Source: Pararhizobium sp. IMCC21322
GTDB lineage: Bacteria; Pseudomonadota; Alphaproteobacteria; Rhizobiales; GCA-2746425
Length of the DNA: 64,000 nucleotides
NCBI RefSeq assembly: GCF_030758295.1
Contig: NZ_CP132335.1
Coordinates: 2,394,412-2,458,411, forward strand
Direction: 5' to 3'
A program made the translations under genes and the position numbers. The notes below the pieces were generated by a model. The model had not been told where the DNA came from. It saw nothing but the letters and a program-made list of their open reading frames with translations, and searched no databases. This document shows, piece after piece, positions 6,001-64,000 of the stretch. Every line of letters begins with the position of its first letter. The stretch's first letter is position 1.

Positions 6001-9000
6001 GGTTATGATGAAGCTGGTGTCTTCCTGAGTTGCACCAAGGTCCACATCATCGGCCACAGGTCCATCATTGACCTCGGTGATATCGAGAACCGCTGTTGCA
6101 TCATCTGTTGTCGTTCCGTCAGAGACGGTAAAGGCAAACGGCACATCATCGGCATTCAAGTCAGCGGTCGGTGCAAAGGTCCAGGTTCCATCACCATTAT
6201 CGGTGAGTGACCCATACTCAGCATCCACGCTGACATCGGTCACAGTCAGCTCGTCACCATCAATGTCAGAAGCGTTGGCCAAAAGCGCAGCTTCGGTAAT
6301 GATGAAGCTCGTGTCTTCAGCTGTTGCGCCCAGATCAACGTCATCAGCCACCGGCCCATCGTTTACTTCGGTAATATCGAGAACCGCTGTTGCATCATCT
6401 GTGGTTGTTCCATCAGAGACAGTGAATGCAAAAGGAACATCATCTGCATTCAAGTCAGCGGTTGGTGCAAAGGTCCATGTGCCATCACCATTATCGGTGA
6501 GGGAGCCGTATTCTGCATCTACGCTGACATCTGTCACGGTCAGCTCATCACCATCAATGTCGGAGGCATTCGCCAGAAGCGCAGCTTCCGTAATGATGAA
6601 GCTTGTGTCTTCAGCTGTTGCCCCAAGATCAACATCATCGGCTACAGGTCCATCATTGACTTCGGTAATGTCGAGAACCGCTGTTGCACCGTCTGTTGTC
6701 GTGCCGTCAAAGACAGTGAACGCAAACGGCACATCAACAGCATTGAGATCGGTTGTTGGTGCAAACGTCCATGTTCCATCACCATTATCGGTGAGGGAGC
6801 CGTATTCTGCTGAGACTGAGACATCCGTCACAGACAGCTCATCGCCATCAATGTCAGATGCATTCGCCAGCAAAGCTGCTTCCGTAATGATGAAGCTTGT
6901 GTCTTCAGCTGTTGCACCAAGATCCACATCATCCGCCACCGGACCATCATTGACTTCCGTGATATCCAGAACCGCTGTTGCACCGTCGGTTGTAGTGCCG
7001 TCAGAGACGGTAAAGGCAAATGGCACATCATCCGCATTCAAGTCAGCGGTTGGTGCAAAGGTCCATGTGCCATCACCATTATCGGTGAGTGACCCATACT
7101 CAGCATCAACACTGACATCGGTCACAGTCAGCTCGTCACCATCAATGTCAGAAGCGTTGGCCAAAAGCGCAGCTTCGGTAATGATGAAGCTCGTGTCTTC
7201 AGCTGTTGCGCCCAGATCAACGTCATCAGCCACCGGCCCATCGTTTACTTCGGTAATATCGAGAACCGCTGTTGCATCATCTGTGGTTGTTCCATCAGAG
7301 ACGGTAAAGGCAAACGGCACATCATCGGCATTCAAGTCAGCGGTCGGTGCAAACGTCCAGGTTCCATCACCATTATCGGTGAGGGTTCCATACTCAGCAT
7401 CCACGCTGACATCGGTCACAGTCAGCTCGTCACCATCAATGTCAGAAGCGTTGGCCAAAAGCGCAGCTTCGGTAATGATAAAGCTGGTGTCTTCAGCCGT
7501 TGCGCCCAGATCAACGTCATCAGCCACCGGCCCATCGTTTACTTCGGTAATATCGAGAACCGCTGTTGCATCATCTGTGGTTGTTCCATCAGAGACGGTA
7601 AAGGCAAACGGCACATCATCGGCATTCAAGTCAGCGGTCGGTGCAAACGTCCAGGTTCCATCACCATTATCGGTGAGGGTTCCATACTCAGCATCAACAC
7701 TGACATCGGTCACAGTCAGCTCGTCACCATCAATATCAGAAGCGTTGGCCAAAAGCGCAGCTTCGGTAATGATGAAGCTCGTGTCTTCAGCTGTTGCGCC
7801 CAGATCAACGTCATCAGCCACCGGCCCATCGTTTACTTCGGTAATATCCAGAACCGCCGTTGCATCATCAGTGGTTGTTCCGTCAGAGACGGTAAATGCA
7901 AACGGTACATCATCCGCATTGAGATCGGTTGTTGGTGCAAAGGTCCATGTCCCATCACCATTATCGGTGAGTGAGCCATACTCTGCATCCACGCTGACAT
8001 CTGTGACAGACAATTCATCGCCATCAATGTCAGATGCATTCGCCAGCAAGGCAGCTTCGGTAATGATGAAGCTGGTGTCTTCCTGGGTAGCCCCAAGATC
8101 AACATCATCCGCCACCGGCCCATCATTGACTTCCGTGATATCCAGCACAGCAGTTGCATCATCAGTGGTTGTTCCGTCAGAGACAGTGAACGCAAACGGC
8201 ACATCATCCGCATTGAGATCAGTCGTCGGCGCAAACGTCCAGGTCCCATCACCATTGTCGGTGAGGGTTCCATACTCAGCATCAACGCTGACATCTGTCA
8301 CAGTCAGTTCATCGCCATCAATGTCAGAGGCATTCGCCAGCAAAGCTGCTTCGGTAATGATGAAGCTCGTGTCTTCAGCTGTTGCGCCCAGATCAACGTC
8401 ATCGGCTACAGGCCCATCGTTGACTTCGGTAATATCGAGAACCGCAGTGGCATCATCTGTTGTGGTGCCGTCAGAGACGGTAAAGGCAAATGGCACATCA
8501 TCCGCATTGAGGTCAGCGGTCGGCGCAAAGGTCCAGGTCCCATCACCATTATCGGTGAGGGAGCCATACTCTGCATCAACACTGACATCTGTCACAGTCA
8601 GTTCATCGCCATCAATGTCGGAAGCATTCGCCAGCAAAGCTGCTTCGGTTATGATGAAGCTGGTGTCTTCCTGAGTTGCACCAAGGTCCACATCATCGGC
8701 CACAGGTCCATCATTGACCTCGGTGATATCGAGAACCGCTGTTGCATCATCTGTTGTCGTTCCGTCAGAGACGGTAAAGGCAAACGGCACATCATCGGCA
8801 TTCAAGTCAGCGGTCGGTGCAAAGGTCCAGGTTCCATCACCATTATCGGTGAGTGACCCATACTCAGCATCCACGCTGACATCGGTCACAGTCAGCTCGT
8901 CACCATCAATGTCTGATGCATTCGCCAGAAGCGCAGCTTCGGTAATGATGAAGCTGGTGTCTTCAGCTGTTGCACCAAGATCAACATCGTCCGCAACCGG

Positions 9001-15771: not shown

Positions 15772-15810
15772 CCCAAAACCACACCAAAGATAACTCAATA
15801 GGAACATGTG

Positions 15811-49989: not shown

Positions 49990-50004
49990 CTCTCATAAAA
50001 ATGC

Positions 50005-50025
50005 TGGTGTGATACCGTCACACCA
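50005..50025. terminator. Hairpin terminator between RND permease and the convergent gene
   Basis: A perfect 8-bp stem TGGTGTGA / TCACACCA with loop TACCG, located 15 bp after the permease stop and before the stop of the convergent gene. No strong T tract follows (GATGCTTTTG), so the efficiency is uncertain. The position suits a bidirectional terminator. Confidence 0.5.
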
Positions 50026-50058
50026 ATGATGCTTTTGCGAATTCGAGCCGGTAATTCT

Positions 50059-51102
50059 CTATTCCAATTCGATGGTCGAAATCGCCTGGAACGGAATTTG
50101 CCTCGCGAAAGCCATCAGCTTCTCCATTGCCGAGCCATCGGCAATGGCCTCCGGATTGTCATCAAGTCCATACTGGGTGAGCACGACAACAACTCTGCCA
50201 GCCAAACACTCAAGCTGAATGTCTCCCGTACCCGCACTTGAGAAGCATGGGATTGAATCGATGTCACGTCGCAACGCATCGCGAGACCGAATCTCGACTG
50301 GTGATTCGCCGGTTTTCTCATAATTTGCAAGAAATTGGTCTGCCGAATTTTCGCGATTACCAAAGAACAGCTCGACCGGCTTGTCTCCATCATTGGTTGG
50401 CAGATCATATCCCTTTACCGTAATCATGAAGCCAACACTTTGCGGAGAGTAGCGCACAGATATGGGTGCAGATGTCATGCTGGCCGGCAGGACATCTCCC
50501 AATGTGCCGCCCTTCAAGCCAGGCACACGCATCTGCGCGCCTTGCTGGGGATCAGGCGCAGCTACGGCAACAATGCCAGCTGATTGTTGCGCCGCTGCAA
50601 TTTGCTCCAGCGGAAAGGTCTCCAGATAGGCCGAAAGCGCGCCCCATGTTTCCTGCTTGGAATTCTCGTCTCCCAACACTTTGACAGGTGCCGACAGTGT
50701 AATGACCAGGTTGTTCAGACGACAATGCAGTTCCACCGCAAACATTGCATCGGCCTTGCGGCAATCGACACCGGCAATTGTTTCCAGGCCTTCGCCACCT
50801 GAAAAACGCTCCATTTTAACAGGGGAAGTGGAGAAATAAACCGTAATGCTCCGCTCCGCCAGAGGGCGATAATCAGAGAAGGCCAAGCTGACACTGGTAC
50901 CATTCACTTCCATCATCGGGCTGACGTTGTCATCCACCATGTCCGGTGGCAGCATGTTCTCTACCGCGATGCCGCCAAGGGCTTCTACCTTGGTGTTCTT
51001 CTCGATAGGCTGCATTTCTGCCGCCGCCGTCTGACACATCAACGCCAGACCAAGCATACTGAAAAACCGGATCAAAATGCTTTTGCAAAGTATTGGGGTC
51101 AT
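50059..51102 (-). CDS. Secreted protein of unknown function with internal duplication (cassette gene 3)
   Basis: I do not recognise the family. About 347 residues from the third of three consecutive ATGs, which has AGG at good spacing. An N-terminal Sec signal peptide ends near CQTAAA. Two halves of about 120 residues appear related: each has a strand, a Cys pair (VDCRKADAMFAVELHC near 115; IPCFSSAGTGDIQLEC near 300), a strand of the type NLVITLS or VVVVLT, and then a helix ending in F. A Gln/Pro linker separates them. It follows the transglutaminase-like gene after about 105 bp in the same direction and is probably part of that cassette. Confidence 0.6.
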   Translation of the reverse strand: MTPILCKSILIRFFSMLGLALMCQTAAAEMQPIEKNTKVEALGGIAVENMLPPDMVDDNVSPMMEVNGTSVSLAFSDYRPLAERSITVYFSTSPVKMERFSGGEGLETIAGVDCRKADAMFAVELHCRLNNLVITLSAPVKVLGDENSKQETWGALSAYLETFPLEQIAAAQQSAGIVAVAAPDPQQGAQMRVPGLKGGTLGDVLPASMTSAPISVRYSPQSVGFMITVKGYDLPTNDGDKPVELFFGNRENSADQFLANYEKTGESPVEIRSRDALRRDIDSIPCFSSAGTGDIQLECLAGRVVVVLTQYGLDDNPEAIADGSAMEKLMAFARQIPFQAISTIELE

Positions 51103-51209
51103 CATCATCCTAATCCGATTGCTGTTGGAAATAACGGCAGTAGCACGCGCACAAAAAATAGAGACAAATTGCATGCTTGATAATTGATGGCGGCATTGCT
51201 GCCTTGTGA

Positions 51210-53438
51210 CTATCCGAATAAAGCATATCCAATGGCCAGCATAATAGCTGTCCCGATGCCTGCACCTGCATGAGCTGATATTGTGATCGAAACATTTCCC
51301 AGTATGATGGTGTATTCTGTACCACCTTTGGATTTTTTACGCAGCGCGTCGGCCTTTCGTTTTGCTTCGGCTTCACGCCGCATCTGACGCTTTAAATCGC
51401 GTTGGAATCTTTCTTTGAATCCTTTCGGATCTTTCGCCATTCCTTCCGCCGTATTGGCTGCATCAGCAATACCGGACCGGGCCACCCCATCACCGGGTTT
51501 CGGGAAAAATGGTCTGGCATTTCCGGCAAGTGCAACGCGCGCATCTGCCCGCCCGGTCTTAGGGTCCAATCGCCACCAGGTGTCAGCAGACATATCCTCA
51601 CTGGCGAACACAGAGAACCCAAGTTCCAGATCTTTGCTTGCCTCAAAACCGCGCTCGGCAAGCTGTTGACCAACGAGCGGAATGAGGCTGCCTTTTTCCG
51701 GTGGAATCGAACCGTTTGGAGCGCCGTTTTGTGTCAGAATAGCCTCTGTTTCCAGAGCCGATTGCAATGCGCCATGCCATATCCGATGCAAGCGCGCTGT
51801 GGCATCTGCGTCGGGTCGGTCCACTGTTCCGGCAATACCAATATCGTCAAGCGTCCAGTCGACCCAATTGACTATTCCGCCTTCTGGCAGGGTTTGTATT
51901 CCAGAAATCAACACTCGAGGTCGAGCGGCCATAATGCAAACGCCAGCGCTGGCCGGGCGCGCACGGATCAGTTCTTCGCTGGCGAGGACAACAGTGCTGG
52001 CTGCTACCCAACTGTACCACATCACAGCTTCCGGGTCAGGCTTCCCGACGCTCAACTGTTTCAGCGTCTCGGGTAGTTCCAGCAGCAGCCCCGAAATGCG
52101 TAGCGCTGCCAGGCGCGGCGACAATCCACCATTTCCAAGGACGATCTGGCGAATGCTTTCAAGTGCGGCTGGGTATTTTTGACCCATTTTTGGTTCAGCA
52201 ATAGCGCTGGGATCAGGTAGTCCACCGTCTTCGACCGACCGGCGCTGTTCTGCGCTGAGTAAATCCAGAATGACCCGTTCTTCCTCGCTGGTTGTCTGGC
52301 CCGGAACTTCGGACCGAACATGCAATGTGATTGCAGTGACTGTTTCCGATTGCTCTTGCTGGAAAAGATCGGTTGACTGATTGACATTGCCTGGCGCGGC
52401 AAAGGGTGTACTTTTGACCATCGTTCCGGAGACTGTCATGATGGCGCGCATGGACGGTGCTTTGCCAGCCAGACCTCCAAGTACATCACTTAAACCACCG
52501 CCGATCCCATCTTGTGCCGGACCGAAGAACAATGCGACTGGCTGTTCTGTCATTTCCGGAACAGACAATCGTTGAGTCAGGATGTTTTTACGTCGCAGCT
52601 TGCCGTTGATCAGGGACTCCAGTTCCAGGGTGATGGAAACCCTGTGTGGCACAACGGGATCTGTCACAATTTCTCCGGCGACAGGCGGTTTGGCCCCGAA
52701 TTTTGCGCTTGCGAGTGTTGGGTCCAGATCCACCCAATCCCGACCAATGCGCGCTTGCAACCAGACATGGCGCTGGTTGGAGGCCGTCGGCAATGGATCT
52801 GGTAAAACAGCATCGGGCAGGGCATCATGCAATGCGCTAAAGCTTCGTTCGGCCCGCGCCTTCACGCGCGCCATGGTTTCGCTCTGAAGCGCTGCAATCC
52901 GCCAGACATGGTCGTCACCTCGTCCCACTTGGCCACAAGCCGCCGCTTGTATTGCCTCTGTCATATCCGCTGTCATGGGTGCTTCGACGAGACGGGTGTC
53001 ATAGCCCATAGAGCGCAACAATTCGGCCAGCGTTTGTGCTTTGTCATGATCATTCCCCCCGCGCGCTGCCATCACAGCATCCGGTTGGCGCAAATGGCCC
53101 TGATAGGGTTCAGTTCGAATTTCGTCGCGGATATAGGCAAACGCAGCCTCGGGGTCCAACATCAGCGATAGTGCAATGTCTTCCGTGCGTTGTTCAGCCT
53201 GTTCAAAATACGTGTTGCGCGCCACAGCTGTTTCAAGTGCCTTCCCGTAGTCCAGCGCTTCTTCTTCAGAAGGCACCGGTCGTTCAGGCAAATCCGAAAA
53301 ATTCGCAGCCCCAGGAGGCGGTACAGACCAGTCATCTGCCGCAGCAGCGGTTTGGTCACCAGCTAAAAACATGGCTGCAACCACTGCAGCAAAAGCAAGG
53401 CGCATTGCCTTGTTCAGGTGAAAGCGTGCATTGATCAT
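51210..53438 (-). CDS. Exported transglutaminase-like protein without catalytic Cys, C-terminal membrane anchor (cassette gene 2)
   Basis: 742 residues with a Sec signal peptide ending near DQTAAAA. Residues about 120-240 resemble a transglutaminase-like core: NDHDKAQTLAELLRSMGY stands where active enzymes have G-x-C-RDK, and RHVWLQARIGRDWVDLDPT supplies the His and Asp strands. The Cys is absent, so classical cysteine chemistry is not expected. The central part (about 260-600) is unassigned. A Lys/Arg-rich stretch (about 680-705) precedes a final hydrophobic helix around IGTAIMLAIGYALFG. GGGAG lies eight bases before the ATG, and the gap to the upstream VWA gene is 31 bp. Confidence 0.7.
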   Translation of the reverse strand: MINARFHLNKAMRLAFAAVVAAMFLAGDQTAAAADDWSVPPPGAANFSDLPERPVPSEEEALDYGKALETAVARNTYFEQAEQRTEDIALSLMLDPEAAFAYIRDEIRTEPYQGHLRQPDAVMAARGGNDHDKAQTLAELLRSMGYDTRLVEAPMTADMTEAIQAAACGQVGRGDDHVWRIAALQSETMARVKARAERSFSALHDALPDAVLPDPLPTASNQRHVWLQARIGRDWVDLDPTLASAKFGAKPPVAGEIVTDPVVPHRVSITLELESLINGKLRRKNILTQRLSVPEMTEQPVALFFGPAQDGIGGGLSDVLGGLAGKAPSMRAIMTVSGTMVKSTPFAAPGNVNQSTDLFQQEQSETVTAITLHVRSEVPGQTTSEEERVILDLLSAEQRRSVEDGGLPDPSAIAEPKMGQKYPAALESIRQIVLGNGGLSPRLAALRISGLLLELPETLKQLSVGKPDPEAVMWYSWVAASTVVLASEELIRARPASAGVCIMAARPRVLISGIQTLPEGGIVNWVDWTLDDIGIAGTVDRPDADATARLHRIWHGALQSALETEAILTQNGAPNGSIPPEKGSLIPLVGQQLAERGFEASKDLELGFSVFASEDMSADTWWRLDPKTGRADARVALAGNARPFFPKPGDGVARSGIADAANTAEGMAKDPKGFKERFQRDLKRQMRREAEAKRKADALRKKSKGGTEYTIILGNVSITISAHAGAGIGTAIMLAIGYALFG

Positions 53439-53469
53439 GCGTAATCTCCCTTGCCCCCCAGCTGTCAGA

Positions 53470-56400
53470 TCATGGTAAGGTCAATCCCGTTTCCGGACTA
53501 TATACAATTTCCGACGATTGTTCATCAATTACTTCGATATCCCGCTCTGGTCCCAAAGCCGTTTGCATTGGTCGCAAACGGTAGCGCCCGGCAGGAAGCG
53601 TGCGAGCTTCATTCAGCCCAATAATGCCAATGCTCTCGCGACCGCCATCCAGATAAAGCCGTGTCAGTTCAAATCGCGGTGCAACCGCTTCTGCAATGGC
53701 ATCGATCAGGGCATCGGGATCATCAGCCGAGATGTAGCGGCCATCTCCGGCGTCCGCCCAGTCGGAGAACGTTTTGGCAAGAGCCTCGTCATCAATGGCA
53801 AAGCCCACAATCGTCAAACGAAGGTCAATACCGCTTTCCGCGATCCGGTTGATTTCACCGGCAACATCCCCGTCGCAGGTTTCATCACCATCTGTGACCA
53901 GCACCACGACGCGTGGCGGATTGAGCGACGCCAGATCCTCAGCGGCCAACACCAAACTTTGCGCAATAGCGGTTTTGGCAAGGTTGATCGCGGGCGTGTT
54001 TCGGATAGCAGCCTCTGCGACCGCAGGATCGAGCGGACCAAATGGCAGTAACAGATCCGATTGGCAGGCATCTGCTGCCAATCCGAAAGCGCGATAGGCA
54101 AAAGGCATCCCGGAGGGGAGGCTCGAATTGACCACCTCCGCCAGCGCATTATGGGCCACCGCAATTCTGCGCTGGCCGTCCGGCATCCGTTTGAGCATAG
54201 ACCCTGAGGCGTCGAGTATCAGCTCGATGGCACCAGATGGTGCCGAGCTTGAACCGTCTGTGCTCTGTTCGGATATAAAAAGTTGGCCCTCACCGGTGGG
54301 CTCAACGAGTTTGGAGAGATCAATTGCCATCTTGTAGGCCTTTGGCGCACGGAACAGGGCGGCCGCCAATTCCATACCATCGGCAAGACCGGATTGACCG
54401 ATCACACGATGGAAATAGCCTTTGTTTATCGAGGCCCAGTCTTTCATCAGTTGGACGCTGGTGGCATCTGAACTGTCGATTGAGAGCGCAACGACCCTTG
54501 GGCGTGTAGACAATAGTGGCGCCCAGGCTTTGGTGAACTGACTGGTCTCCGCATCCGTGATGACTACAATCCCGTTTATGCCCGGTGGGCCCGCAAGAGC
54601 GATTGAAGCTGTTGCTAAGGCTTGTTCAGCACCGCTGCTTCCGGTTGACGGAAGGTTGGCCAACGCTTGATAGACGTCCTCAGGATTTTCCGCCCAATCA
54701 TCAAGCAGCAGCTTGTCTGAACCAAATGGCAGCAACTGTATCACGTCGCGACCCGGTATCAGTGATTGTGCCCAAAGCCGGACAGCAGCCAGAGTTCGCG
54801 GGATGTATTGGGCGACGCTACCAGACGTGTCCCACAAGATCACAATAGAGCGCGGCGGCTCAAAAATGGTGAGCAGGTGCTCACCGGGACCAACCGACGC
54901 GGACAAATTCAAATCATTCGTTGTGGATGCTGCGCGCAAGAGCGGAATGTCAGCGCCATCTGGTCCTGTCAGTCGCCAGGCCATCTCAGGTTGGGAAATG
55001 CCCGGAAAGCGAAAAGTTAGACGATGCATCCCTTCCGGCACCGCGATCCGCCACCAATCCTCATTGCGTTCAATTTGGACTGAAGAGACAATCGTTGGTC
55101 CTTCTTTGAGATCTACTGCCTCTGCCGCATTCGCCCCGCCTGCAGGTGTTGGCAGCACGGGTACGGACGCTGCACCCTGATCTTCATAAACCGCATCGGG
55201 TCGGTCATCCTCCCAAAGACCCAGAACGGATTTTGTGGCCCGGTCTTCAAAGACGGCAATCTGGTCTGGTAAGGTCAGTTGCATTTTCTCATCACGCTCG
55301 AAACTCAGACGCAGGGCGCGTGCCCATACAGGTGCAGGCAATTCCAGTCGCGTGTTCGTGTCTCCAATTGGTGGAGCCGAAATTGAACCAATTGAAAGCC
55401 ACGGTCCGGCAGGACCAGATTGGCTGATTTCAAGCCCAACTGTCGGAATGCGAGGGCCATCGTCGTCGCGCCCGACCCAATCGATTGCATCAATACGTGC
55501 AGCCCTGTTGCCCTGGAAACCAATTACGGCCCATGCGGATTTTCCGGCCGATGTGCTCTGAGGGGTAAGCCGGTCCGATTTTCCCTGAGTAAGAATACCG
55601 ACGTTGCGACTCCCGCTAAACAGGGTTTCGTCAGAAACCGTATTACCGATGGTACCCGCTGCGATGATATGCCCACCCAATTCTGTTGCAGCGATGTTCA
55701 GCGCGTTATCTGGACGCCAAGCCGGGTCGGCGATCAGCCCGATGTCGGACAGTGCAAAGGTCTTGCAATCCGCATCGCCCTGGCAGTCGTTCAATCGCCA
55801 CCGTGCGTGAGTTGCCACAAATGGCTCCGATAACGAAAAGATTTGTGGTTCGAGCCTGGCATCCAGTTGTTGGGTCGCCACTTGCGTCCAGTCCGCTCCA
55901 TTTGCTGACAGGTCCAACGCAATGCGCCTTGGCCAGTTGCTGCGAGGTTCCGTAGAGCGAAGTTGAATCTTGTATCCCGCAACTGGTGCTGAACTGGCGA
56001 GTTGGAACGTCAATTCCCGTGCTTTGACAGAAGTCGGCAAACTGGCGTGATACGCAGCGCCATCGTGTAAGAACGAATAGCGCTTGGCATCATCTTCGCT
56101 TGCGGTTGCGCCGTCCAGACCGATCAGCTGAGCGCCAAATTGGTGCGACATCGGGTCAAGGCCACCGCGCAATTGCGCCGGTGCCAGCCAATACAGATGC
56201 GCACCGCGTTCTGGCGTTGTCGTTTCAAAAGAGACAGGAAAGGTTGCGGCGGCTTCGCCTTTGGACGATTTTGCGCTGATGTATAGGGCAGGGTCCGCGA
56301 GACTGCTCTGCATCAATGGCATTTCAAGCACTATCGACAAGTCAAGCTCTTGGCCAGGATCAACCGATGATGCAGTGGTTGAGGGCGTGACCCGCCAACC

Positions 56401-59208
56401 TTCGGCCAGCGCAGACAGGGCAATGGACAATTCTACTGGCAATGCACTGTCATTCCTGACGGTGGCGGTCAATTCAGCCCTTTGTCCAAATTTGGAAAAG
56501 GCACGAAACGGAGTTTCAAGGCCCTTTACTGAAAGGGAAACCGGCAAATCTTCAACGACTTGTTGAGCGCGCAACCATTCTGGACGCCCACCTGAAAGCA
56601 CCTGCAAAGCCTGGTTAGGGTCGTAATCCGTTACTATTACCGATGTAGATGTATCAGCCGGGCGTCGATCACGCGGGGCGGTGAAAGCAGCTGGTGGCCC
56701 CATCTGAGCCGGCGCTAAGATGTTGCTCGGGCCGGCTGTGCGGCATGCCCAAGGCATTGGGTATTCTGCATTGCGGGGTGGTTTTAGTTTTATAATTTGC
56801 GGTGTGTTATCCGGCTGAAACAGGTGCCAGCCGGTCATTTCCATATCCTGCTCAAGACTTCGGCTCAGCGAAGGGCTGCCTTCTGCGGAGATTTCACGAC
56901 CGCGCTTGGGACGATAGGGCTCTTTATCACGCGGTAAGAAAGAGCAGGAAAAGCCTGCGAGCAATCCGTCAGCCTCTATTGTAAAGCTGTCTTCATCTTT
57001 TTCATCGTCAAACTGGCCATCCAGCCGTGTATCAGCGTTGAGCAACTGAGGCGGTGTTGCATCTCCATGGGTTGCAGATTTCGCTTGAAGTGGATCATTG
57101 TCGGTTTGAATAAAAGCAACCTGGCACTGGTAGTCGAATGACGTTTGGCTCCTGCCAATACGCAATTCAATTGCGCCGCCCAGATCAGGGCCATATTCAG
57201 TCAAGATCATACGACCGGTATCGATTGCGGCAAGGCGGACTTTGTCTCCATAGGTCCATAACGAGATATCCCGGCCATCGCCTGAGCAGGTCAATGCAAG
57301 CTGACCTGTGCCCTCTGGCAATGGCACGAAGACCAAATCCAGATCGTCGAACGCTCCGACGCGTCCTTTGATGAGACCGTCTGTCGGCAATGCCTGTAAT
57401 GTGCCTGGAAGCGTGTCCGGCTCGGGCCCTTCGGCACCATCAGCACGCGCCAGCGACACCTCGTAGCGCCCGGAGATATCGTTACCTGCCGGGCTGAGCC
57501 GCAATGTCCATTGTCCTGCCGGAAGTCGAGCACTGTAGTTTTCCGCGCCGGAAATGGTTGCAGCCGCCCAACGCCGGTTATCGCGCTTCAATTCCGCGTT
57601 CACCGCGCCATCATCAGGTGGCGTCACAATTAACGTCAACGGTGTATCGACCTCCAGATCGAAACTGAACAGATCCAGATCCTGATTGGTGTGAAAATTG
57701 CCTTCGAAGCGGTCACCAGGACGGATGCGCAAAGCCTCTGCTTGCGTGTCGTTGGGTTCTGTTGCGTCTCCATCTGGCACAGGTCCCAAATCAGTCAATC
57801 TGAATGCGTAGGGGCCATTGCCCTGAAGTTTGGCAAAATACTGTCCGGGATGAAGTGACAGCAGCAATACCAGTGACTTGTCATCCGCCTTCCAGCGTCC
57901 GATCTGCTGCTGGTTGCCATCAGATAATGTGATGTCTTTTATGCCAACGATGCCGCGAAGCTCCCAAAGATGGCCGTCAGCATCCACATCGAAACGCAAC
58001 ATGTCAGGATCGTCGTCGGACAGCGCGCCTCTTACAGCACTATCCACCGGCAATTCACGGGCAAACATCTCTGTATCATCAGGCTCACGGCCAGCAGCTG
58101 GCGTGGGTTGCGTGGCCGGGTCAAAGCGCAACTCGTAGCCCAGGGGATGATCAGGGGATCCGTTGATCGTGACGCGGTAAGTACCGGCAGGCAATTCCAG
58201 ACCGCGTCGAAGTGCCTGACCGGACCATGTATTCAGCTTCAGTATTTCAGCTGCAGGTTCCGGATTGAGCCGTTCAAAAACCAGTTCGACCTTCTCGTCA
58301 CGATCCGTGTTGAGGCTCAAATCCCAAAATGAGGTCTTTTCCAGCAGAAACTCAACCGCGTCACGGTCCTGCTTTGCGAGCAAATTTCCAGACGCTGTGA
58401 ACCCATCGTCATCGACTTTCCCAAGGTTCCCTGGAGTGCCGCCTTCTCTTTCTGAATTTGGTTCGGTCTCCTGGGTGTCGCTTGCCTCAAGGACCCTCAC
58501 TATGATCGGCGCAAAACTCTGGTCGGCTCGCTTCACAGCATCGAGACGCAGGAGTATTTCGCGCTCAAGATGCAGGGGAAAGACACCGCCGGAAGCAATG
58601 TGCCAACTACCCAGCCTGGCGGCTAATTTTAAGCCAGGTTCGCGTATCGCCTCCACAAGAAGCCTGTCTGTTGTTTCAGCCTGCAGCTTCATTTCGATAG
58701 TTTTTTGGGGTCGAAACCTGAACAACTGGCCTGGTTTCAAAGTCGAAAGCGATGATTTGTCCGGATCGTCAAACTCAGGGATTTCATCCAACGGCATTAT
58801 AAGTTCAAAAGATATTGACTGCGGATTGTCTGATTTCACTTGCAAAAGATAGGGGCGTTCGCGCTCAAGCAGCAGATCATCAAGTTGATCGCCCGCGAGC
58901 GAAGTTGCCGATGAGCGTAGCAATTTGGGAGCGGCCTTTGAATTTGCCTGATCCTCAGCAGAGGGAAATGAATAAAGGCTGATGCTTCCCTGATCAGAAA
59001 TCGAAATCCGATACAATCCACTACGAGCGACGGAAAGACGTGCCAACCCTGATTGCAAAGTGTTCGTTGAGGTCTGACCCGGTCGGGATATTTCTGTAAT
59101 CCGCTCCAGATCAATATCTTGACCGAGCGCTGCGACCGGCGAAAAAACAATTCCGACAACCAACAAGCCGACCAGAACGCTCCAAATATTTCTTTGGCAG
59201 AAATGCAT
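53470..59208 (-). CDS. Giant exported protein with PPC-like modules and two VWA domains (cassette gene 1)
   Basis: 1,912 residues from the ATG five bases after GAGGAG (MHFCQRNIWSVL); the frame extends 41 codons upstream without meaning. A Sec signal peptide ends near SPVAALG. The N-terminal half contains repeated pre-peptidase-C-terminal-like modules, each opening with EPNDT-type motifs (EPDDTEMFAREL, EPNDTQAEALRI). A discoidin-like segment lies around WPRRIALDLSANGADWTQV. Two VWA domains follow: MIDAS DTSGS at about 1460 with ITDAETS, and DASGS at about 1666 with VTDGDET. The C-terminus is a beta-rich tail. VWA pairs bind proteins through metal; the target is unknown. It leads a three-gene minus-strand cassette. 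Confidence 0.82.
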   Translation of the reverse strand: MHFCQRNIWSVLVGLLVVGIVFSPVAALGQDIDLERITEISRPGQTSTNTLQSGLARLSVARSGLYRISISDQGSISLYSFPSAEDQANSKAAPKLLRSSATSLAGDQLDDLLLERERPYLLQVKSDNPQSISFELIMPLDEIPEFDDPDKSSLSTLKPGQLFRFRPQKTIEMKLQAETTDRLLVEAIREPGLKLAARLGSWHIASGGVFPLHLEREILLRLDAVKRADQSFAPIIVRVLEASDTQETEPNSEREGGTPGNLGKVDDDGFTASGNLLAKQDRDAVEFLLEKTSFWDLSLNTDRDEKVELVFERLNPEPAAEILKLNTWSGQALRRGLELPAGTYRVTINGSPDHPLGYELRFDPATQPTPAAGREPDDTEMFARELPVDSAVRGALSDDDPDMLRFDVDADGHLWELRGIVGIKDITLSDGNQQQIGRWKADDKSLVLLLSLHPGQYFAKLQGNGPYAFRLTDLGPVPDGDATEPNDTQAEALRIRPGDRFEGNFHTNQDLDLFSFDLEVDTPLTLIVTPPDDGAVNAELKRDNRRWAAATISGAENYSARLPAGQWTLRLSPAGNDISGRYEVSLARADGAEGPEPDTLPGTLQALPTDGLIKGRVGAFDDLDLVFVPLPEGTGQLALTCSGDGRDISLWTYGDKVRLAAIDTGRMILTEYGPDLGGAIELRIGRSQTSFDYQCQVAFIQTDNDPLQAKSATHGDATPPQLLNADTRLDGQFDDEKDEDSFTIEADGLLAGFSCSFLPRDKEPYRPKRGREISAEGSPSLSRSLEQDMEMTGWHLFQPDNTPQIIKLKPPRNAEYPMPWACRTAGPSNILAPAQMGPPAAFTAPRDRRPADTSTSVIVTDYDPNQALQVLSGGRPEWLRAQQVVEDLPVSLSVKGLETPFRAFSKFGQRAELTATVRNDSALPVELSIALSALAEGWRVTPSTTASSVDPGQELDLSIVLEMPLMQSSLADPALYISAKSSKGEAAATFPVSFETTTPERGAHLYWLAPAQLRGGLDPMSHQFGAQLIGLDGATASEDDAKRYSFLHDGAAYHASLPTSVKARELTFQLASSAPVAGYKIQLRSTEPRSNWPRRIALDLSANGADWTQVATQQLDARLEPQIFSLSEPFVATHARWRLNDCQGDADCKTFALSDIGLIADPAWRPDNALNIAATELGGHIIAAGTIGNTVSDETLFSGSRNVGILTQGKSDRLTPQSTSAGKSAWAVIGFQGNRAARIDAIDWVGRDDDGPRIPTVGLEISQSGPAGPWLSIGSISAPPIGDTNTRLELPAPVWARALRLSFERDEKMQLTLPDQIAVFEDRATKSVLGLWEDDRPDAVYEDQGAASVPVLPTPAGGANAAEAVDLKEGPTIVSSVQIERNEDWWRIAVPEGMHRLTFRFPGISQPEMAWRLTGPDGADIPLLRAASTTNDLNLSASVGPGEHLLTIFEPPRSIVILWDTSGSVAQYIPRTLAAVRLWAQSLIPGRDVIQLLPFGSDKLLLDDWAENPEDVYQALANLPSTGSSGAEQALATASIALAGPPGINGIVVITDAETSQFTKAWAPLLSTRPRVVALSIDSSDATSVQLMKDWASINKGYFHRVIGQSGLADGMELAAALFRAPKAYKMAIDLSKLVEPTGEGQLFISEQSTDGSSSAPSGAIELILDASGSMLKRMPDGQRRIAVAHNALAEVVNSSLPSGMPFAYRAFGLAADACQSDLLLPFGPLDPAVAEAAIRNTPAINLAKTAIAQSLVLAAEDLASLNPPRVVVLVTDGDETCDGDVAGEINRIAESGIDLRLTIVGFAIDDEALAKTFSDWADAGDGRYISADDPDALIDAIAEAVAPRFELTRLYLDGGRESIGIIGLNEARTLPAGRYRLRPMQTALGPERDIEVIDEQSSEIVYSPETGLTLP

Positions 59209-59655
59209 CGTCACTCCTCGATTTATGATCTCATCAAAGGCGTGCCCATAAATTTCCAAATATTGAGCAGTCTTCCTGGAGAACACAATGTCCGGTCCGG
59301 GCAATTGCAAAGTTCCAACTCGCTGGCGCAATCGTAAAACAACAATCGCGACTGTAGCAACCTTGGCCGGTTTAATGCGGAATCTGTCCAGAGGGATGCT
59401 TCATTGTTCGTTAAGACAAACACAGTCCTTTAAATCCAATGCATTTCAACACCGACTTCCAAAGTCTGACCTGTTCTGGTTTTCCAAGCTGACGGGCATG
59501 TGGACAGACTGTGCCGGCGCGGAGTTTCGGTGTCTCTGAACCTCCTGCTGATCGTGCCCTTGAAGATGCCTTCAAAGAGCCCAACAAGCTCCACACACAA
59601 AACACAGTTCCATTCTAATCAGTTTATATCACTGAAAAGAAAGGATATTTTTGTG
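59209..59655. other. Divergent intergenic region
   Basis: About 450 bp between the start of the giant VWA gene and the start of the small secreted protein on the other strand. It should hold promoters for both. I see no convincing operator palindrome, RNA gene or repeat; frames crossing it on either strand lack ribosome-binding sites or family resemblance. Confidence 0.5.
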
Positions 59656-60123
59656 ATGATACCCTCCCAGATCAAGCAAACGAATTACACTCAAGCAAGC
59701 TGTGCAATTCGATCCGCCAAACCCGCAACCCGCTTGTTGCAAGTCTCATTGGCGATTGCAGCCCTGAGCGTCTTCGCGATGCCCAAGGCGTTTGCATCAG
59801 ATCAGGTCGTGTCTGATTTGATGATCCAGACCACTAACAGCCGCGCATATGACAACCATCTGATCCATGCGGCCACTCATAAAGATACGCCAGCCATAAG
59901 TGATCTATTTATTCTGACCCAAGCCAATGGTGGGCAAAGGCCTCCTGGAGGAGGGCAGGAGCCTGATCTGTCTCAGGCTGCTGCAGAACTGGGTGTGTCG
60001 GAAGATGCATTGCGGGACGCACTTGGCGGCCCACCGCCTAATTTTGCTCAAGCTGCAGAAAAGCTGGGAATTTCAGAAGATCAACTGCAATCTGTCATGC
60101 CGCCACCTCCGCGAAGGCAGTAG
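59656..60123 (+). CDS. Small secreted protein with duplicated 'AAxxLGxSEDxL' motif
   Basis: 155 residues from the ATG behind AAGGA (MIPSQIKQTNYTQ). A Sec signal peptide ends near PKAFA. The middle is uncharacterised. The C-terminus has a Gly/Pro hinge (GGQRPPGGGQEP), then two copies of a helical motif: LSQAAAELGVSEDALRDAL and FAQAAEKLGISEDQLQSVM, each followed by Pro-rich turns. Similar tails occur at the ends of various small exported bacterial proteins, without a known role. The gene ends before a strong bidirectional terminator. Confidence 0.7.
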   Translation: MIPSQIKQTNYTQASCAIRSAKPATRLLQVSLAIAALSVFAMPKAFASDQVVSDLMIQTTNSRAYDNHLIHAATHKDTPAISDLFILTQANGGQRPPGGGQEPDLSQAAAELGVSEDALRDALGGPPPNFAQAAEKLGISEDQLQSVMPPPPRRQ

Positions 60124-60283: not shown

Positions 60284-63200
60284 CTAGCTCAATTTGCCGC
60301 TGGCATGTGCCAGCATGGTGTAGACTTTACCTGTATCCGACGTGAGATATTTGTCAGTCAATTCGGCATCGCCGTGCTTGTCTGTCACTTCACCCATCAG
60401 GCGCTCAAAGTCTTCGATATACTGGTTTACCGCAGAGCGGAACTCACCATCATTCTGGAACTTGCGGCGAATGTCGTCGAAAGTTTTCTGACCCTGGATC
60501 GTGTAGAGGCGACGGGTGAAGACATTGCGTTCCCCACGATTGTAGCGCTCCCACAACTCAACAGACGTTGAGTGATCAATGGCACGGGCAATATCCGCAG
60601 ACAGGGAATTCAGTGATTCCACCATTTCCGGCTCACTGCGTTTTACCTCTTCCGCTTTTGGCTCCTTGCGCTCTTCACGCTTGCCAAGTTGCTCGCCAAC
60701 CTCACGGTCATCATCGGTTGATGCGCGTTCCAGAAGACTGCTGACCCAGCCGGCACTCTTCTTCTCGCCTTCCTTGCCAGTGCTGCTGGCTGAGGCTGGC
60801 CTTACCGGTGCCGGTGCTGGTCTTGCAGCTTTGGCTGCAAGCGCTGGCGTTTCCTTGGCCGCTGGGGCAGGGCGACTGCCTGCCGCCGCAATGGCTGCCG
60901 ACGTGCCAGCCGAGGAGTTTGGACGGGCATGCTGCGTTACGATGTCCGACAGATCAGACAGAGCCTGAATTTGCTCGGCGACAACACGGCGCATAGTGGC
61001 CATATTTTCACGGGTTTCCTCAGGCAGCTCAACAGTTGCCTTCTTCAGATCAGCCCGAACTGCATTCAATTCAGACTGCATGGATTCTGCCGTGGCTCGC
61101 ATTTCAACGGTTGCGTCCCTGAAGCGAGAGGTCGCATCAGATATTGCATTGGAAATACCCTCAGTCAGCTCAGACTGAGCAAGGCGAACAGCTTCGGAGG
61201 CCTTGTTGCCTTCTGCACCAGCCGCTGTGCTCATAGCTGCCAATTGTTCGACAACACCACGCGTTGCTTTCTCGGCGTTACGGCTGAGATTGATGCCAAT
61301 CTGCTCGGCACGATCTTCAGCACCGGCAAGGGTTTCAGCAATCAGGCTTGAGAAGGCACGCATGCGTGTCTCAACATCGTCCGATTTCTGCATGATGCCC
61401 TGGGCAACCTGCTCCAGAACCGCATAGCGTGTCTGGAAGGTGTCCTCAATGGTGTCATTGCTGTTGTCCAGACGACCCGAAACTTCGGCAAGAGATTTGA
61501 TCTGCGTTTCGATTTTCTCTGCCAGTCCGGTCATGCCGCCCAGCACATTACTGGAGACATCCTGAAGAATGCCGACCTGTCCGGAAATCGCATCCGTTGA
61601 GGACTGACTTTCTTCCAGCGCCTTGGCAAGTGTCGTGCGGAACTCTTCTGCGCGGGCACCAAGGCCATCTTCCACAGCCCCCAATTGCTCATGGGCAGAG
61701 GCCAGAACCTGCTGTAGGCCGGAATTGGCATTCTCAAGGCGAGATACCATGGATTCAACGTCATCACGCAGGCGCTCATTTGCGTTGCTGAGCAGGCTGA
61801 TCGCTTCGGTGCTGCGGCTATCCAGCAACTCAACCAGAGAACTGGATGACGTGGAAATCGTCTCAGCAATTTCACGGCTGCGCTCTGTCATTGTGTTAGC
61901 CATGGATTCGCTGTTGTTAAACACCCGTTCCGCAGCTTCCATTGAGGTTTGCTCAAGATTGACAACAGTGTTCTGGCTTGCAGCCAGTAGGCGCTCAACG
62001 GCTTCACTGCTCTGTGTATCAAGAGCTGCCAGCACGCTGTGGCTGCTTTCACTCAAGCGGTTTGCCGCCTGATCAGACTGATCTGTCATCTTGGAGATGA
62101 AGTCGCTGGTAGCACCTGTCATGATTTCCGCAATCTCACGACCGCGTTCATTGAAGGCATCCAGCAGTCCACGGCTGGTATCATCAAGACGTTCAGCAAC
62201 TATACGGTTACCTTCGTCGAACTGCAGACCTGCCATTTCAGCATGTGTCTTGAGCGTTGAAACCAGTTCCTCATTGCTGTCGAGCATGCGTGAGCGAGCT
62301 TCCTCAGCAAGATGAGCAATGGCACGACCGCTGTCGTCCAGACGATTGACCGCTTCTTCACTCTGAGTGGCGAGGGCGGTAATCAGCTTGTCGTTGTTTT
62401 CCATCATGCGTGCATTGGCTTCTTCGGCCAGCAACCCAACTGCGCGGTTGGTCTGGTCAAGCTTGTCAGCAGATGCATCAGTCTGGGTCGCAAGTGCGCC
62501 GATAAGTTGCTCACTGCTGTCCAACATACGTGAGCGGGCTTCTTCAGCCAATTGAGCAACAACACGACCGCTCTCGTTGAGGCGTTCTGTAGCTTCTTCG
62601 CTTTGTGAAGACAGGGTTGCCGCCAGTTCCAGATTGGCTTCTGCAATCCGCACACGGGCTTCTTCAGCCAATTGAATGGCAACGCGACCACTTTCGTCGA
62701 GGCGACCGGCAACATCATCACCTTGCGCTGCGAGAGCGGCGACAAGTTCCTGATTGGCTTCCGTAATACGGGCGCGAGCCGCATCGCTCTGCTCGACTGC
62801 TTCACGGCTGGTTTCACTCAGACGCTCGACGGCCTGATCGCTCAGGGCCTGAAGTGTAGATACAAAGTCGGTGTTCACGCCAACAAGACGCTCTGTGGCC
62901 TGTTCGCTAAGCTGCAGAATGGATGTACCGCTCTCAGACAGTTTTTGAACAACTGCAGCACCCTGGTCTTCAATATTGGCCAGAAGTTCCTGATTGCCAT
63001 CCAAAAGCCGCGCGCGGGCGTTCTCACTGGATGCGGCAATCGCTGCAGCAATGTCTTCACCCTGCTGGGAGAAGGTATCAACAATGGTTGAACCGGCAGT
63101 GCGGAGCTGTGTTGACAGATCAAGACCTTTCTCGTGCAATGCAGAGATCAGTGATCCGCCGCTATTGTCGAGAATTTCAGTCAGCTCTGCAGTGCGGGCA

Positions 63201-64000
63201 CCCAAAGTTTCGTTCAACTGCAGTGTGGAGCCGGTGAGGTTCTCAGTTGCAATGGCAACGCGGCTGACGAGCTTCTCATCAAGTTCTTCGGTCAGGCTGG
63301 AAATACCGGTTGAGGCACGCTCCAGATTGCTAAGCAGGCTCTCACTGGCATTCGTAATTGTTGAGCGGAACATGTTGTTCGCCTGTTCAACATTGACCAC
63401 GAAATTGGAGTTTGCTTTTTCGCCCTGTTCGTAGAGTTCCGTTCCAATGGCTTCCATGCTGGCGGAGAGGGACTGTTGCAGAACACTTGCGCGCTCTTCC
63501 AGGTTTTCGGCAACTTCGAACACTTTCGTGCCCAGAGCCATGTTGATTTCCTGAATCCGCTCGGACACGACTTCCGACATCTCGCGGGTTTTATTGGAAA
63601 GTGCTTCGTTGACTTCCTGGAAACGGCCTTCAAGCGTCATTGTGATATCGTTCTGACCTTCACCGAAGGCGCGGGCAATCTCACGTGTGCGCTCAATCAG
63701 AGCTTCATTCATCTCGGCGGTGCGAATATCAAGCGCTTCGCTGACCATGCCAGCGCGTTGCTCAAGGGTTTCGGAAAGTGCATCGGCTTTGCTGCCAATG
63801 GTGCTGGCCGCACTGTCGAGGCGCACACCAACACTGTCTTCAAAGGTATTGAGGCGGCCAGCGAGCACGTCTTCCATCACGCCAGTGCGCTCAGCAAGCG
63901 TATCGCCGACTTTCTCGGTGGCAGCACTGACAGATGTGGTGAAGTTGTTCAGGTGATCCGCCATTGTAGACTGCATGGCTTCACTATGTCTGGAGATCGA
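60284..64000 (-). CDS. Giant coiled-coil protein (rhizobial 'kinesin-like'), N-terminus outside window
   Basis: The frame is open to the right edge, so 1,238 C-terminal residues are visible and the true start is outside. Most of it is an Ala/Glu/Ser-rich coiled coil built of approximate repeats of about 40 residues around motifs such as RLDDSGRAIAHLAEEARSRM. Next come an Ala/Pro-rich linker (about 130-260 residues from the end) and a conserved globular end with IARAIDHSTSVELWERY, RNVFTRRLYTIQGQ and LTSDTGKVYTMLAHASGKL. That end is characteristic of large proteins annotated as kinesin-like or apolipoprotein-like in Hyphomicrobiales. The function is unknown; a role in cell envelope or cell-pole architecture is only a guess. 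There is no kinesin motor domain in the visible part. Confidence 0.82.
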   Translation of the reverse strand, partial: SISRHSEAMQSTMADHLNNFTTSVSAATEKVGDTLAERTGVMEDVLAGRLNTFEDSVGVRLDSAASTIGSKADALSETLEQRAGMVSEALDIRTAEMNEALIERTREIARAFGEGQNDITMTLEGRFQEVNEALSNKTREMSEVVSERIQEINMALGTKVFEVAENLEERASVLQQSLSASMEAIGTELYEQGEKANSNFVVNVEQANNMFRSTITNASESLLSNLERASTGISSLTEELDEKLVSRVAIATENLTGSTLQLNETLGARTAELTEILDNSGGSLISALHEKGLDLSTQLRTAGSTIVDTFSQQGEDIAAAIAASSENARARLLDGNQELLANIEDQGAAVVQKLSESGTSILQLSEQATERLVGVNTDFVSTLQALSDQAVERLSETSREAVEQSDAARARITEANQELVAALAAQGDDVAGRLDESGRVAIQLAEEARVRIAEANLELAATLSSQSEEATERLNESGRVVAQLAEEARSRMLDSSEQLIGALATQTDASADKLDQTNRAVGLLAEEANARMMENNDKLITALATQSEEAVNRLDDSGRAIAHLAEEARSRMLDSNEELVSTLKTHAEMAGLQFDEGNRIVAERLDDTSRGLLDAFNERGREIAEIMTGATSDFISKMTDQSDQAANRLSESSHSVLAALDTQSSEAVERLLAASQNTVVNLEQTSMEAAERVFNNSESMANTMTERSREIAETISTSSSSLVELLDSRSTEAISLLSNANERLRDDVESMVSRLENANSGLQQVLASAHEQLGAVEDGLGARAEEFRTTLAKALEESQSSTDAISGQVGILQDVSSNVLGGMTGLAEKIETQIKSLAEVSGRLDNSNDTIEDTFQTRYAVLEQVAQGIMQKSDDVETRMRAFSSLIAETLAGAEDRAEQIGINLSRNAEKATRGVVEQLAAMSTAAGAEGNKASEAVRLAQSELTEGISNAISDATSRFRDATVEMRATAESMQSELNAVRADLKKATVELPEETRENMATMRRVVAEQIQALSDLSDIVTQHARPNSSAGTSAAIAAAGSRPAPAAKETPALAAKAARPAPAPVRPASASSTGKEGEKKSAGWVSSLLERASTDDDREVGEQLGKREERKEPKAEEVKRSEPEMVESLNSLSADIARAIDHSTSVELWERYNRGERNVFTRRLYTIQGQKTFDDIRRKFQNDGEFRSAVNQYIEDFERLMGEVTDKHGDAELTDKYLTSDTGKVYTMLAHASGKLS

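What the first reader, a model, noticed from the sequence alone, without database searches (positions are those of the whole stretch)
50059..59208. Three-gene exported cassette: double-VWA giant, Cys-less transglutaminase-like anchor protein and duplicated Cys-pair protein
Three same-strand genes with 31 and about 105 bp gaps all carry Sec signals. The first offers PPC-like modules, a discoidin-like segment and two MIDAS-type VWA domains. The second is transglutaminase-like without the Cys and has a C-terminal membrane helix. The third has two related halves, each with a Cys pair. The set could be a surface or periplasmic binding machine, and I know of no described system with this composition.
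Basis: partly seen in the sequence, partly recalled or inferred. Interest (0 to 1): 0.68.

Follow-up and report, generated by a model that had tools for sequence, protein, structure and literature searches.

The report
Giant adhesin paired with dead transglutaminase
A bacterium carries a rare, exported gene pair, a giant multi-domain binding protein next to a transglutaminase-like protein that has lost its catalytic cysteine; distant lineages keep the two genes side by side, so they probably work together as an undescribed surface or periplasmic recognition machine.

Summary
The cassette idea is half right. The giant (PPC-like modules, discoidin/CBM32-like part, two VWA domains) and the Cys-less transglutaminase-like (TG) protein form a conserved pair: in all six genomes or records found with a full-length giant, from four lineages, the TG gene is next door on the same strand, in either order. 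A sister species also carries a fusion of a Cys-less TG domain to a VWA domain. The third gene is not part of the core: it was found only in the window's genus (2 of 249 order genomes). The TG domain belongs to the inactive-transglutaminase family described in 2012 at the N-termini of RHS polymorphic toxins; here it occurs without RHS or recognised toxin domain. Best reading: an exported two-part recognition complex in which the pseudo-enzyme binds or anchors the giant, whose lectin-like and metal-dependent domains contact outside ligands. Complex formation, ligand and localisation are inferred. Cys-less TG genes in other classes have no VWA neighbour. Both structure predictions failed (mean pLDDT 35 and 33). 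New variant of a known kind.

The parts
53470..59208 (-). Giant exported protein, 1912 aa: signal peptide, PPC-like modules, Ig/NEW3-like segment, one or two discoidin-like domains, PPC-like segment, VWA1, VWA2, short tail
57439..58464 (-). PPC-like EPN/D modules (residues about 249-590)
   Evidence: EPNS/EPDD/EPND motifs at 249, 375, 484; two homologues match PF04151 below its cut-off; no Pfam PPC match in the window protein
55714..56208 (-). Discoidin/CBM32-like domain 1 (residues about 1001-1165)
   Evidence: F5_F8_type_C 1045-1136, E 3.9e-6, just under cut-off; above cut-off in G176 homologue; profile A8 matches CBM32 structures 2j1a, 4a41, 5zu6 at E 1e-4 to 2e-3
55243..55713 (-). Possible second discoidin-like domain (residues about 1166-1322)
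   Evidence: my reading of the alignment; no Pfam match of its own
54334..54870 (-). VWA1 (residues about 1447-1625), DTSGS at 1460; DxSxS lost in G102
53674..54231 (-). VWA2 (residues about 1660-1845), DASGS at 1666, T1746, D1773, metal site kept in all six giants; Cys 1715/1778
   Evidence: profile matches VWA structures 4cn8 (mussel PTMP1), 4jdu, 3ibs (BatB)
51210..53438 (-). Cys-less transglutaminase-like exported protein, 742 aa
52719..53147 (-). TG-like core (residues 98-240): G128-N129-D130-H131-D132-K133-A134 in place of GxCxxKA; His224 kept
51213..51293 (-). C-terminal hydrophobic segment (residues 716-742), possible membrane anchor
50059..51105 (-). Third gene, 348 aa, Sec-type signal, two Cys pairs, genus-restricted accessory
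50004..50026 (-). Terminator-like hairpin with T-run just after the third gene (9 pairs)
   Evidence: weak, because such sites are about as frequent as in shuffles of the region (14 found, mean 11.1, sd 3.1)

Best explanation
The giant and the TG-like protein are two halves of one exported, non-enzymatic recognition complex. Both are sent out by Sec. The TG-like domain has lost its nucleophile but probably keeps the peptide groove of the fold, and uses it to hold an extended peptide, either part of the giant or an envelope peptide, so that the second protein anchors the giant at the envelope (in the window species through its C-terminal hydrophobic helix). The giant projects PPC/Ig-like spacers and presents discoidin/CBM32-like domains for glycans and a MIDAS VWA domain (VWA2) for a metal-dependent protein contact. 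The third protein is a lineage-specific accessory. Shown here: domain homologies, absence of the Cys in the 15 strong relatives examined, adjacency in four lineages, a TG-VWA fusion, purifying selection. Inferred: that the two proteins bind each other, the peptide-groove role, the ligands, and the location.
For: Pair adjacent on one strand in six of six genomes or records with a full-length giant, four lineages, spacing -4 to +63 bp. In the order sample of 249, 4 genomes have the full-length giant and all 4 have a strong TG hit; 5 genomes have strong TG hits, and the fifth (G082) has a VWA gene next door, convergent (VWA match E 4e-16 with the giant, but below Pfam's cut-off). In the G176 family: giant 2 of 103, TG 3 of 98, the same two plus one weak Cys-containing enzyme. 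A 1099-aa protein in G002 joins a Cys-less TG domain (profile E 4.7e-10; not matched by Pfam) to a VWA domain (Pfam E 1.6e-9), with a 4-bp overlap to a Sel1 protein that has a weak discoidin match (E 0.0019, below cut-off). Cys position is D, S, A or P in 15 strong members (14 by script; G666 by eye), while five weak hits carry GxC. VWA2 metal site kept in six of six giants. CBM32 and VWA structural matches. dN/dS 0.16-0.19.
Against: No interaction was modelled or measured; both AlphaFold jobs failed (mean pLDDT 35.3 and 32.7). Outside the alphas the Cys-less TG relatives looked at have no VWA or discoidin neighbour: G840 and G856 lie by Ig-domain giants, and three annotated plasmid RHS loci show none. 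A C-terminal hydrophobic helix is missing at the threshold used in G176 and G666 and is weak and internal in Indioceanicola, so membrane anchoring is not general. VWA1 DxSxS is lost in G102. No outer-membrane export system is linked to the pair, so the complex may stay periplasmic. The pair is very rare (giant 1 of 385 class genomes; TG 2 of 385, one of them a Cys-containing enzyme) and was lost in sister species G001, so it is dispensable.
Confidence: 0.55

Rival explanations
1. The TG-like protein is a toxin-type effector: an RHS-less relative of polymorphic toxins whose hydrophobic C-terminus acts on a target membrane; the giant is the adhesin that brings it to the target, and the exported third protein gives immunity.
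For: Same inactive TG domain as RHS toxins (hhalign A9 versus A11, probability 98.2, E 3.8e-14); hydrophobic C-termini in window, G002, G102, G082 and G856; the third gene sits directly downstream as immunity genes do (recalled generality).
Against: No RHS repeats and no toxin domain found by Pfam or NCBIfam, and no PADLOC match; the protein is 87% identical to that of G002 over its whole length, C-terminus included, not swapped at the end; no hydrophobic C-terminus in G176/G666; no third gene at the other lineages' loci.
Confidence: 0.12
2. The TG-like protein is an active enzyme that uses Asp or Ser in place of Cys with the kept His, cross-linking or cutting the giant.
For: His224 and, in most members, an Asp after it are kept; Ser at the Cys position in G176/G666 and Asp in the window.
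Against: Ala or Pro at that position in G102, Indioceanicola, G082, the G002 fusion, G856 and four of five plasmid relatives; the His is not kept in the G002 fusion.
Confidence: 0.05
3. The pair is a chance neighbourhood of two unrelated accessory surface genes, spread together by a few horizontal transfers.
For: Patchy, rare distribution; one copy on a 1.18-Mb plasmid; lost in G001; TG relatives in other classes without VWA neighbours.
Against: Gene order differs between lineages; identity between lineages is only 21-32%, which suggests long co-retention; a TG-VWA fusion exists and G082 has a TG gene beside a separate VWA gene.
Confidence: 0.15

Closest known systems
Inactive transglutaminase domain at the N-terminus of RHS polymorphic toxins (Zhang et al. 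2012, PMC3482391, section 19 and passages read)
   Same: TG-like domain, catalytic Cys lost, placed soon after a signal peptide; same G-[NTS]-x-x-[DE]-x-A signature and significant profile match
   Different: No RHS array and no recognised toxin domain; separate protein partnered with a VWA/discoidin giant
RloB of the rlo operon of Pseudomonas aeruginosa (inactive TG fused to seven TM helices; PMC12239564, abstract and passages seen)
   Same: Inactive TG domain predicted outside the cytoplasm
   Different: Seven TM helices, operon with retropepsin-like protease and ATP-grasp protein; none of these here
CBM32 / F5_F8 type C (discoidin) domains
   Same: Pfam and PDB profile matches of the giant's middle part
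   Different: Match near cut-off in the window protein; sugar-binding residues not tested; embedded in a VWA giant
VWA domains such as BatB and mussel proximal thread matrix protein 1
   Same: VWA2 sequence match and DxSxS...T...D site
   Different: No Bat or MoxR genes among the immediate neighbours; part of an exported giant

Membership tests
Inactive transglutaminase domain of polymorphic toxins | TG-like domain with one or more catalytic residues lost | tested here: met
   Transglut_core E 1.1e-7; Cys replaced by Asp
Inactive transglutaminase domain of polymorphic toxins | Homology to the RHS-associated TG domains | tested here: met
   hhalign probability 98.2 over 69 columns; the G840 member has 14 RHS repeats
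Inactive transglutaminase domain of polymorphic toxins | Located right after signal peptide or TM helix | tested here: met
   hydrophobic N-terminus, then TG core from residue 98
RHS polymorphic toxin | RHS repeat array | tested here: not met
   no RHS match in Pfam or NCBIfam
RHS polymorphic toxin | C-terminal toxin domain with immunity gene | tested here: inconclusive
   no toxin family matched; a novel one cannot be excluded
Active transglutaminase-like enzymes (Transglut_core) | Catalytic Cys-His-Asp triad | tested here: not met
   Cys absent
RloB-type inactive TG with seven TM helices | Seven TM helices; rlo operon partners | tested here: not met
   one C-terminal hydrophobic segment; flanking genes are RND/HlyD, a small ORF and a helical-repeat gene
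MIDAS-type VWA domain | DxSxS...T...D metal site | tested here: met
   VWA2 in six of six giants
Discoidin / CBM32 | F5_F8 type C domain above curated cut-off | tested here: inconclusive
   27.4 versus 28.2 bits in window, 29.4 in G176
Discoidin / CBM32 | Ligand-binding residues and sugar binding | not tested
   no structure model of adequate quality
MoxR-AAA / VWA / transglutaminase clusters (recalled) | MoxR-type ATPase and DUF58 genes beside VWA and TG genes | tested here: not met
   the flanking genes scanned are other families; only these were scanned

The most novel reading that the evidence does not exclude
Cys-less TG proteins are general docking partners of giant exported multi-domain proteins across Proteobacteria: an undescribed class of pseudo-enzyme-anchored surface recognition systems (VWA/discoidin giants in Alphaproteobacteria; an Ig-domain giant and a toroid/carboxypeptidase-regulatory-like protein beside the TG gene in another class, G856), of which the RHS-toxin version is only one offshoot.
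Probability: 0.3. Interest if true: 0.65.

Novelty: new variant of a known kind. Interest (0 to 1): 0.5.

Why it matters
It gives a simple two-gene setting in which the role of inactive transglutaminase domains, so far only guessed to anchor toxins by binding peptides, can be tested without a toxin: does the pseudo-enzyme bind its giant partner? It also adds an exported VWA plus lectin-like machine of up to 1957 aa that none of the papers listed by the searches made here describes.

Tried and rejected
Folding: AlphaFold on the TG-like protein (5-row alignment) and on the third protein (2 rows) gave mean pLDDT 35.3 and 32.7; no fold search was run on such models. PDB sequence searches with the TG-like protein and profile and with the third protein gave nothing credible. 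Defence systems: no PADLOC match. Third gene: no Pfam or NCBIfam family. Plasmid search with the window TG-like protein, the G002 fusion and the G082 TG protein: none. G223 looked like a giant relative (46% over VWA2) but is a 721-aa protein beside a ThiF gene with no TG gene on its 5.35-kb contig; dropped from the count of full-length giants. The G082:C38 VWA protein has weak toroid-type matches below cut-off and was set aside. Weak TG hits in G738, G871, G228, G314 and G632 are Cys-containing and were not counted as members; G128 (E 7e-4) was not resolved. The idea that the cassette is an inserted island was weakened: G001 keeps a remnant of the third gene's end at the empty site, which points to loss there, and G+C does not differ from the neighbours.

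Full report
What is there. On the minus strand at 59208-50059 lie three genes: a 1912-aa giant, a 742-aa transglutaminase-like (TG) protein and a 348-aa protein. Gaps are 31 bp and 104 bp (the third gene starts at 51105 if the signal-peptide Met is used). A terminator-like hairpin follows the third gene at 50026-50004, but such sites are about as frequent in the region as in shuffles. All three N-termini are hydrophobic. Against the sister species G002 (locus L004, in genome contigs JANSWZ010000001.1), dN/dS is 0.164, 0.194 and 0.157 for the three genes, against 0.062 and 0.041 for the flanking RND and helical genes: real genes, evolving faster than these neighbours.

Giant. Pfam finds two VWA stretches (E 3.6e-13) and an F5_F8_type_C match just under the cut-off. 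The G176 relative passes the cut-off for F5_F8 and matches PPC below its cut-off; Indioceanicola matches both below cut-off. A profile of six relatives matches CBM32 structures (hyaluronidase 2j1a, E 1.3e-4, and others) and VWA structures (4cn8, 4jdu, 3ibs). A second discoidin-like domain is my reading of the alignment, without its own Pfam match. VWA2 keeps the metal site in all six giants; VWA1 lost DxSxS in G102.

TG-like protein. Transglut_core matches at E 1.1e-7. Where Cys-containing relatives read GxCxxKA (G738, G871, G314, G632, G228), the window reads GNDHDKA: the Cys is Asp. In the other strong members it is Ser (G176; G666 by eye), Ala (G102, Indioceanicola, G082, G856), Pro (G002 fusion) or Asp (G840), and Ala in four and Asp in one of five plasmid relatives. 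The His is kept in most, not in the fusion.

Third protein. No Pfam or NCBIfam family; 2 of 249 order genomes, both in the genus; no credible relative at the pair's loci in G176, G666, G102 or Indioceanicola. Two Cys pairs have equal spacing; the halves are perhaps related (27 of 1000 shuffles reach the score; hhalign E 0.01, probability 4%).

Co-occurrence. The full-length giant was seen in 4 of 249 order genomes: window genome, G002, G176, G102 (the search counts 107 genomes, but the other rows listed lie in the VWA2 region; the list was cut at its weak end). A middle-region profile (A5) finds it in 1 of 385 class genomes, the window's own, 1 of 10 of G102's family and 2 of 103 of G176's family, G176 and G666. 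A tblastn search of 72,556 plasmid records finds one, Indioceanicola profundi NZ_CP030127.1. In all six a TG-like gene lies next door on the same strand: giant then TG in the window genus, G176 and G666; TG then giant in G102 and Indioceanicola (spacing). Conversely, a TG profile (A6) hits 6 of 249 order genomes: four with the giant; G082, where a VWA gene is next door in convergent orientation; and G128, weak and unresolved. An earlier TG profile (A1) hits 2 of 385 class genomes, the own one and a Cys-containing enzyme in G314, and the single protein hits 2 of 61 relatives, both in the genus. I assume that the draws of 249 genomes are the same set; the listed handles agree. Fisher's exact test on 4 giants and 5 strong TG genomes gives 3e-8, but G000 and G002 are one genus, so this overstates the evidence; four independent lineages is the fair count. 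In G176's family a TG profile (A10) hits 3 of 98: G176, G666 and a Cys-containing enzyme in G632.

Fusion. G002 carries a second locus in which a Cys-less TG domain and a VWA domain sit in one 1099-aa protein. The VWA part is above Pfam's cut-off (E 1.6e-9); the TG part is not matched by Pfam and rests on profile A6 (E 4.7e-10) and on the single-protein search (E 1.5e-8). The gene overlaps by 4 bp that of a Sel1 protein with a weak discoidin match below cut-off. This is independent, if partly weak, evidence that TG and VWA parts belong to one process.

Wider family. A TG profile (A10) hits 7 of 200 phylum genomes: the own genome, two Cys-less proteins in other classes (G840, G856) and four Cys-containing proteins. 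G840 is an N-terminal TG domain in a protein with RHS repeats next to a 2926-aa Ig-repeat giant; G856 is a 1043-aa TG protein with hydrophobic C-terminus beside an Ig-domain protein and a toroid/carboxypeptidase-regulatory-like protein. Neither shows a VWA or discoidin neighbour, so the VWA partnership is so far an alphaproteobacterial trait. tblastn with the G856 domain finds 16 plasmid records; under the match 9 are annotated as RHS, 2 as DUF6531, 1 as transglutaminase-domain proteins, and 4 have no annotation. Profile comparison of the cassette TG proteins with G856, G840 and five plasmid relatives gives probability 98.2, E 3.8e-14 over 69 columns. [quoted passage not shown] section 19 and passages read).

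Locus history. In G001 and G003 the flanking genes lie together without the cassette. G001 keeps a decayed copy of the last codons of the third gene at that place, so there the cassette was lost. No remnant was recognised in G003; in G004 the RND-side gene was not found in synteny. G+C does not set the cassette apart.

Mechanism. I propose an exported two-part recognition complex: TG-like groove as docking site, giant as glycan- and metal-dependent binding arm. Only the homologies, the conserved neighbourhood, the fusion and the selection are shown. The membrane anchor is plausible in the window species, G002 and G102, but not in G176/G666. Two structure predictions failed. Rivals: toxin-like effector with exported immunity, active enzyme with a changed nucleophile, chance neighbourhood.

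Literature. Eight searches of the open-access library gave no paper, among the titles and abstracts listed, on a TG-like plus VWA/discoidin exported pair; four of them returned none, and three of the others listed only the top 15-20 of 37-50 papers. RloB (PMC12239564, passages seen) is another inactive TG, with seven TM helices and other partners.

Noticed in passing
window 767-10776: 34 copies of a 294-bp tandem unit (98 aa) in a minus-strand open frame of 3833 codons, followed by two ABC transporter genes and an ORF at 15808: looks like a giant repeat adhesin with type I secretion (inference; the export partner was not scanned).
   Followed up: partly
window 60284-63976 and beyond: Helical-repeat protein with apolipoprotein-like Pfam match, present in 5 of 5 genus genomes; resembles the Rhizobiales growth-pole-ring protein (recalled).
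   Followed up: no
L076 (G001) about 6129-6213: Decayed end of the third cassette gene at the empty site between the RND pump and helical genes.
   Followed up: yes
L027 5709-6989 and L037 5859-7124: Divergent from the giant in G176 and G666, an exported-looking protein made of repeats of the type CKSGFVWRDAWDGDGVCVTPAERA.
   Followed up: no
L027 12776-18799, L037 12938-18238: The TG partners in G176 and G666 carry long Pro-rich, repetitive C-terminal regions of different length (2007 and 1766 aa), unlike the short window protein.
   Followed up: no
L075 14400-17183 and L079 3496-5259: A squalene-cyclase/prenyltransferase-toroid protein lies upstream of the Cys-less TG gene in both G856 (two genes away) and Spartinivicinus ruber (directly): possibly another recurrent partner.
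   Followed up: no
window 59500-60123: Small plus-strand ORF divergent from the giant, with a signal-like segment and two repeats of the type AAxxLGxSExxL.
   Followed up: no
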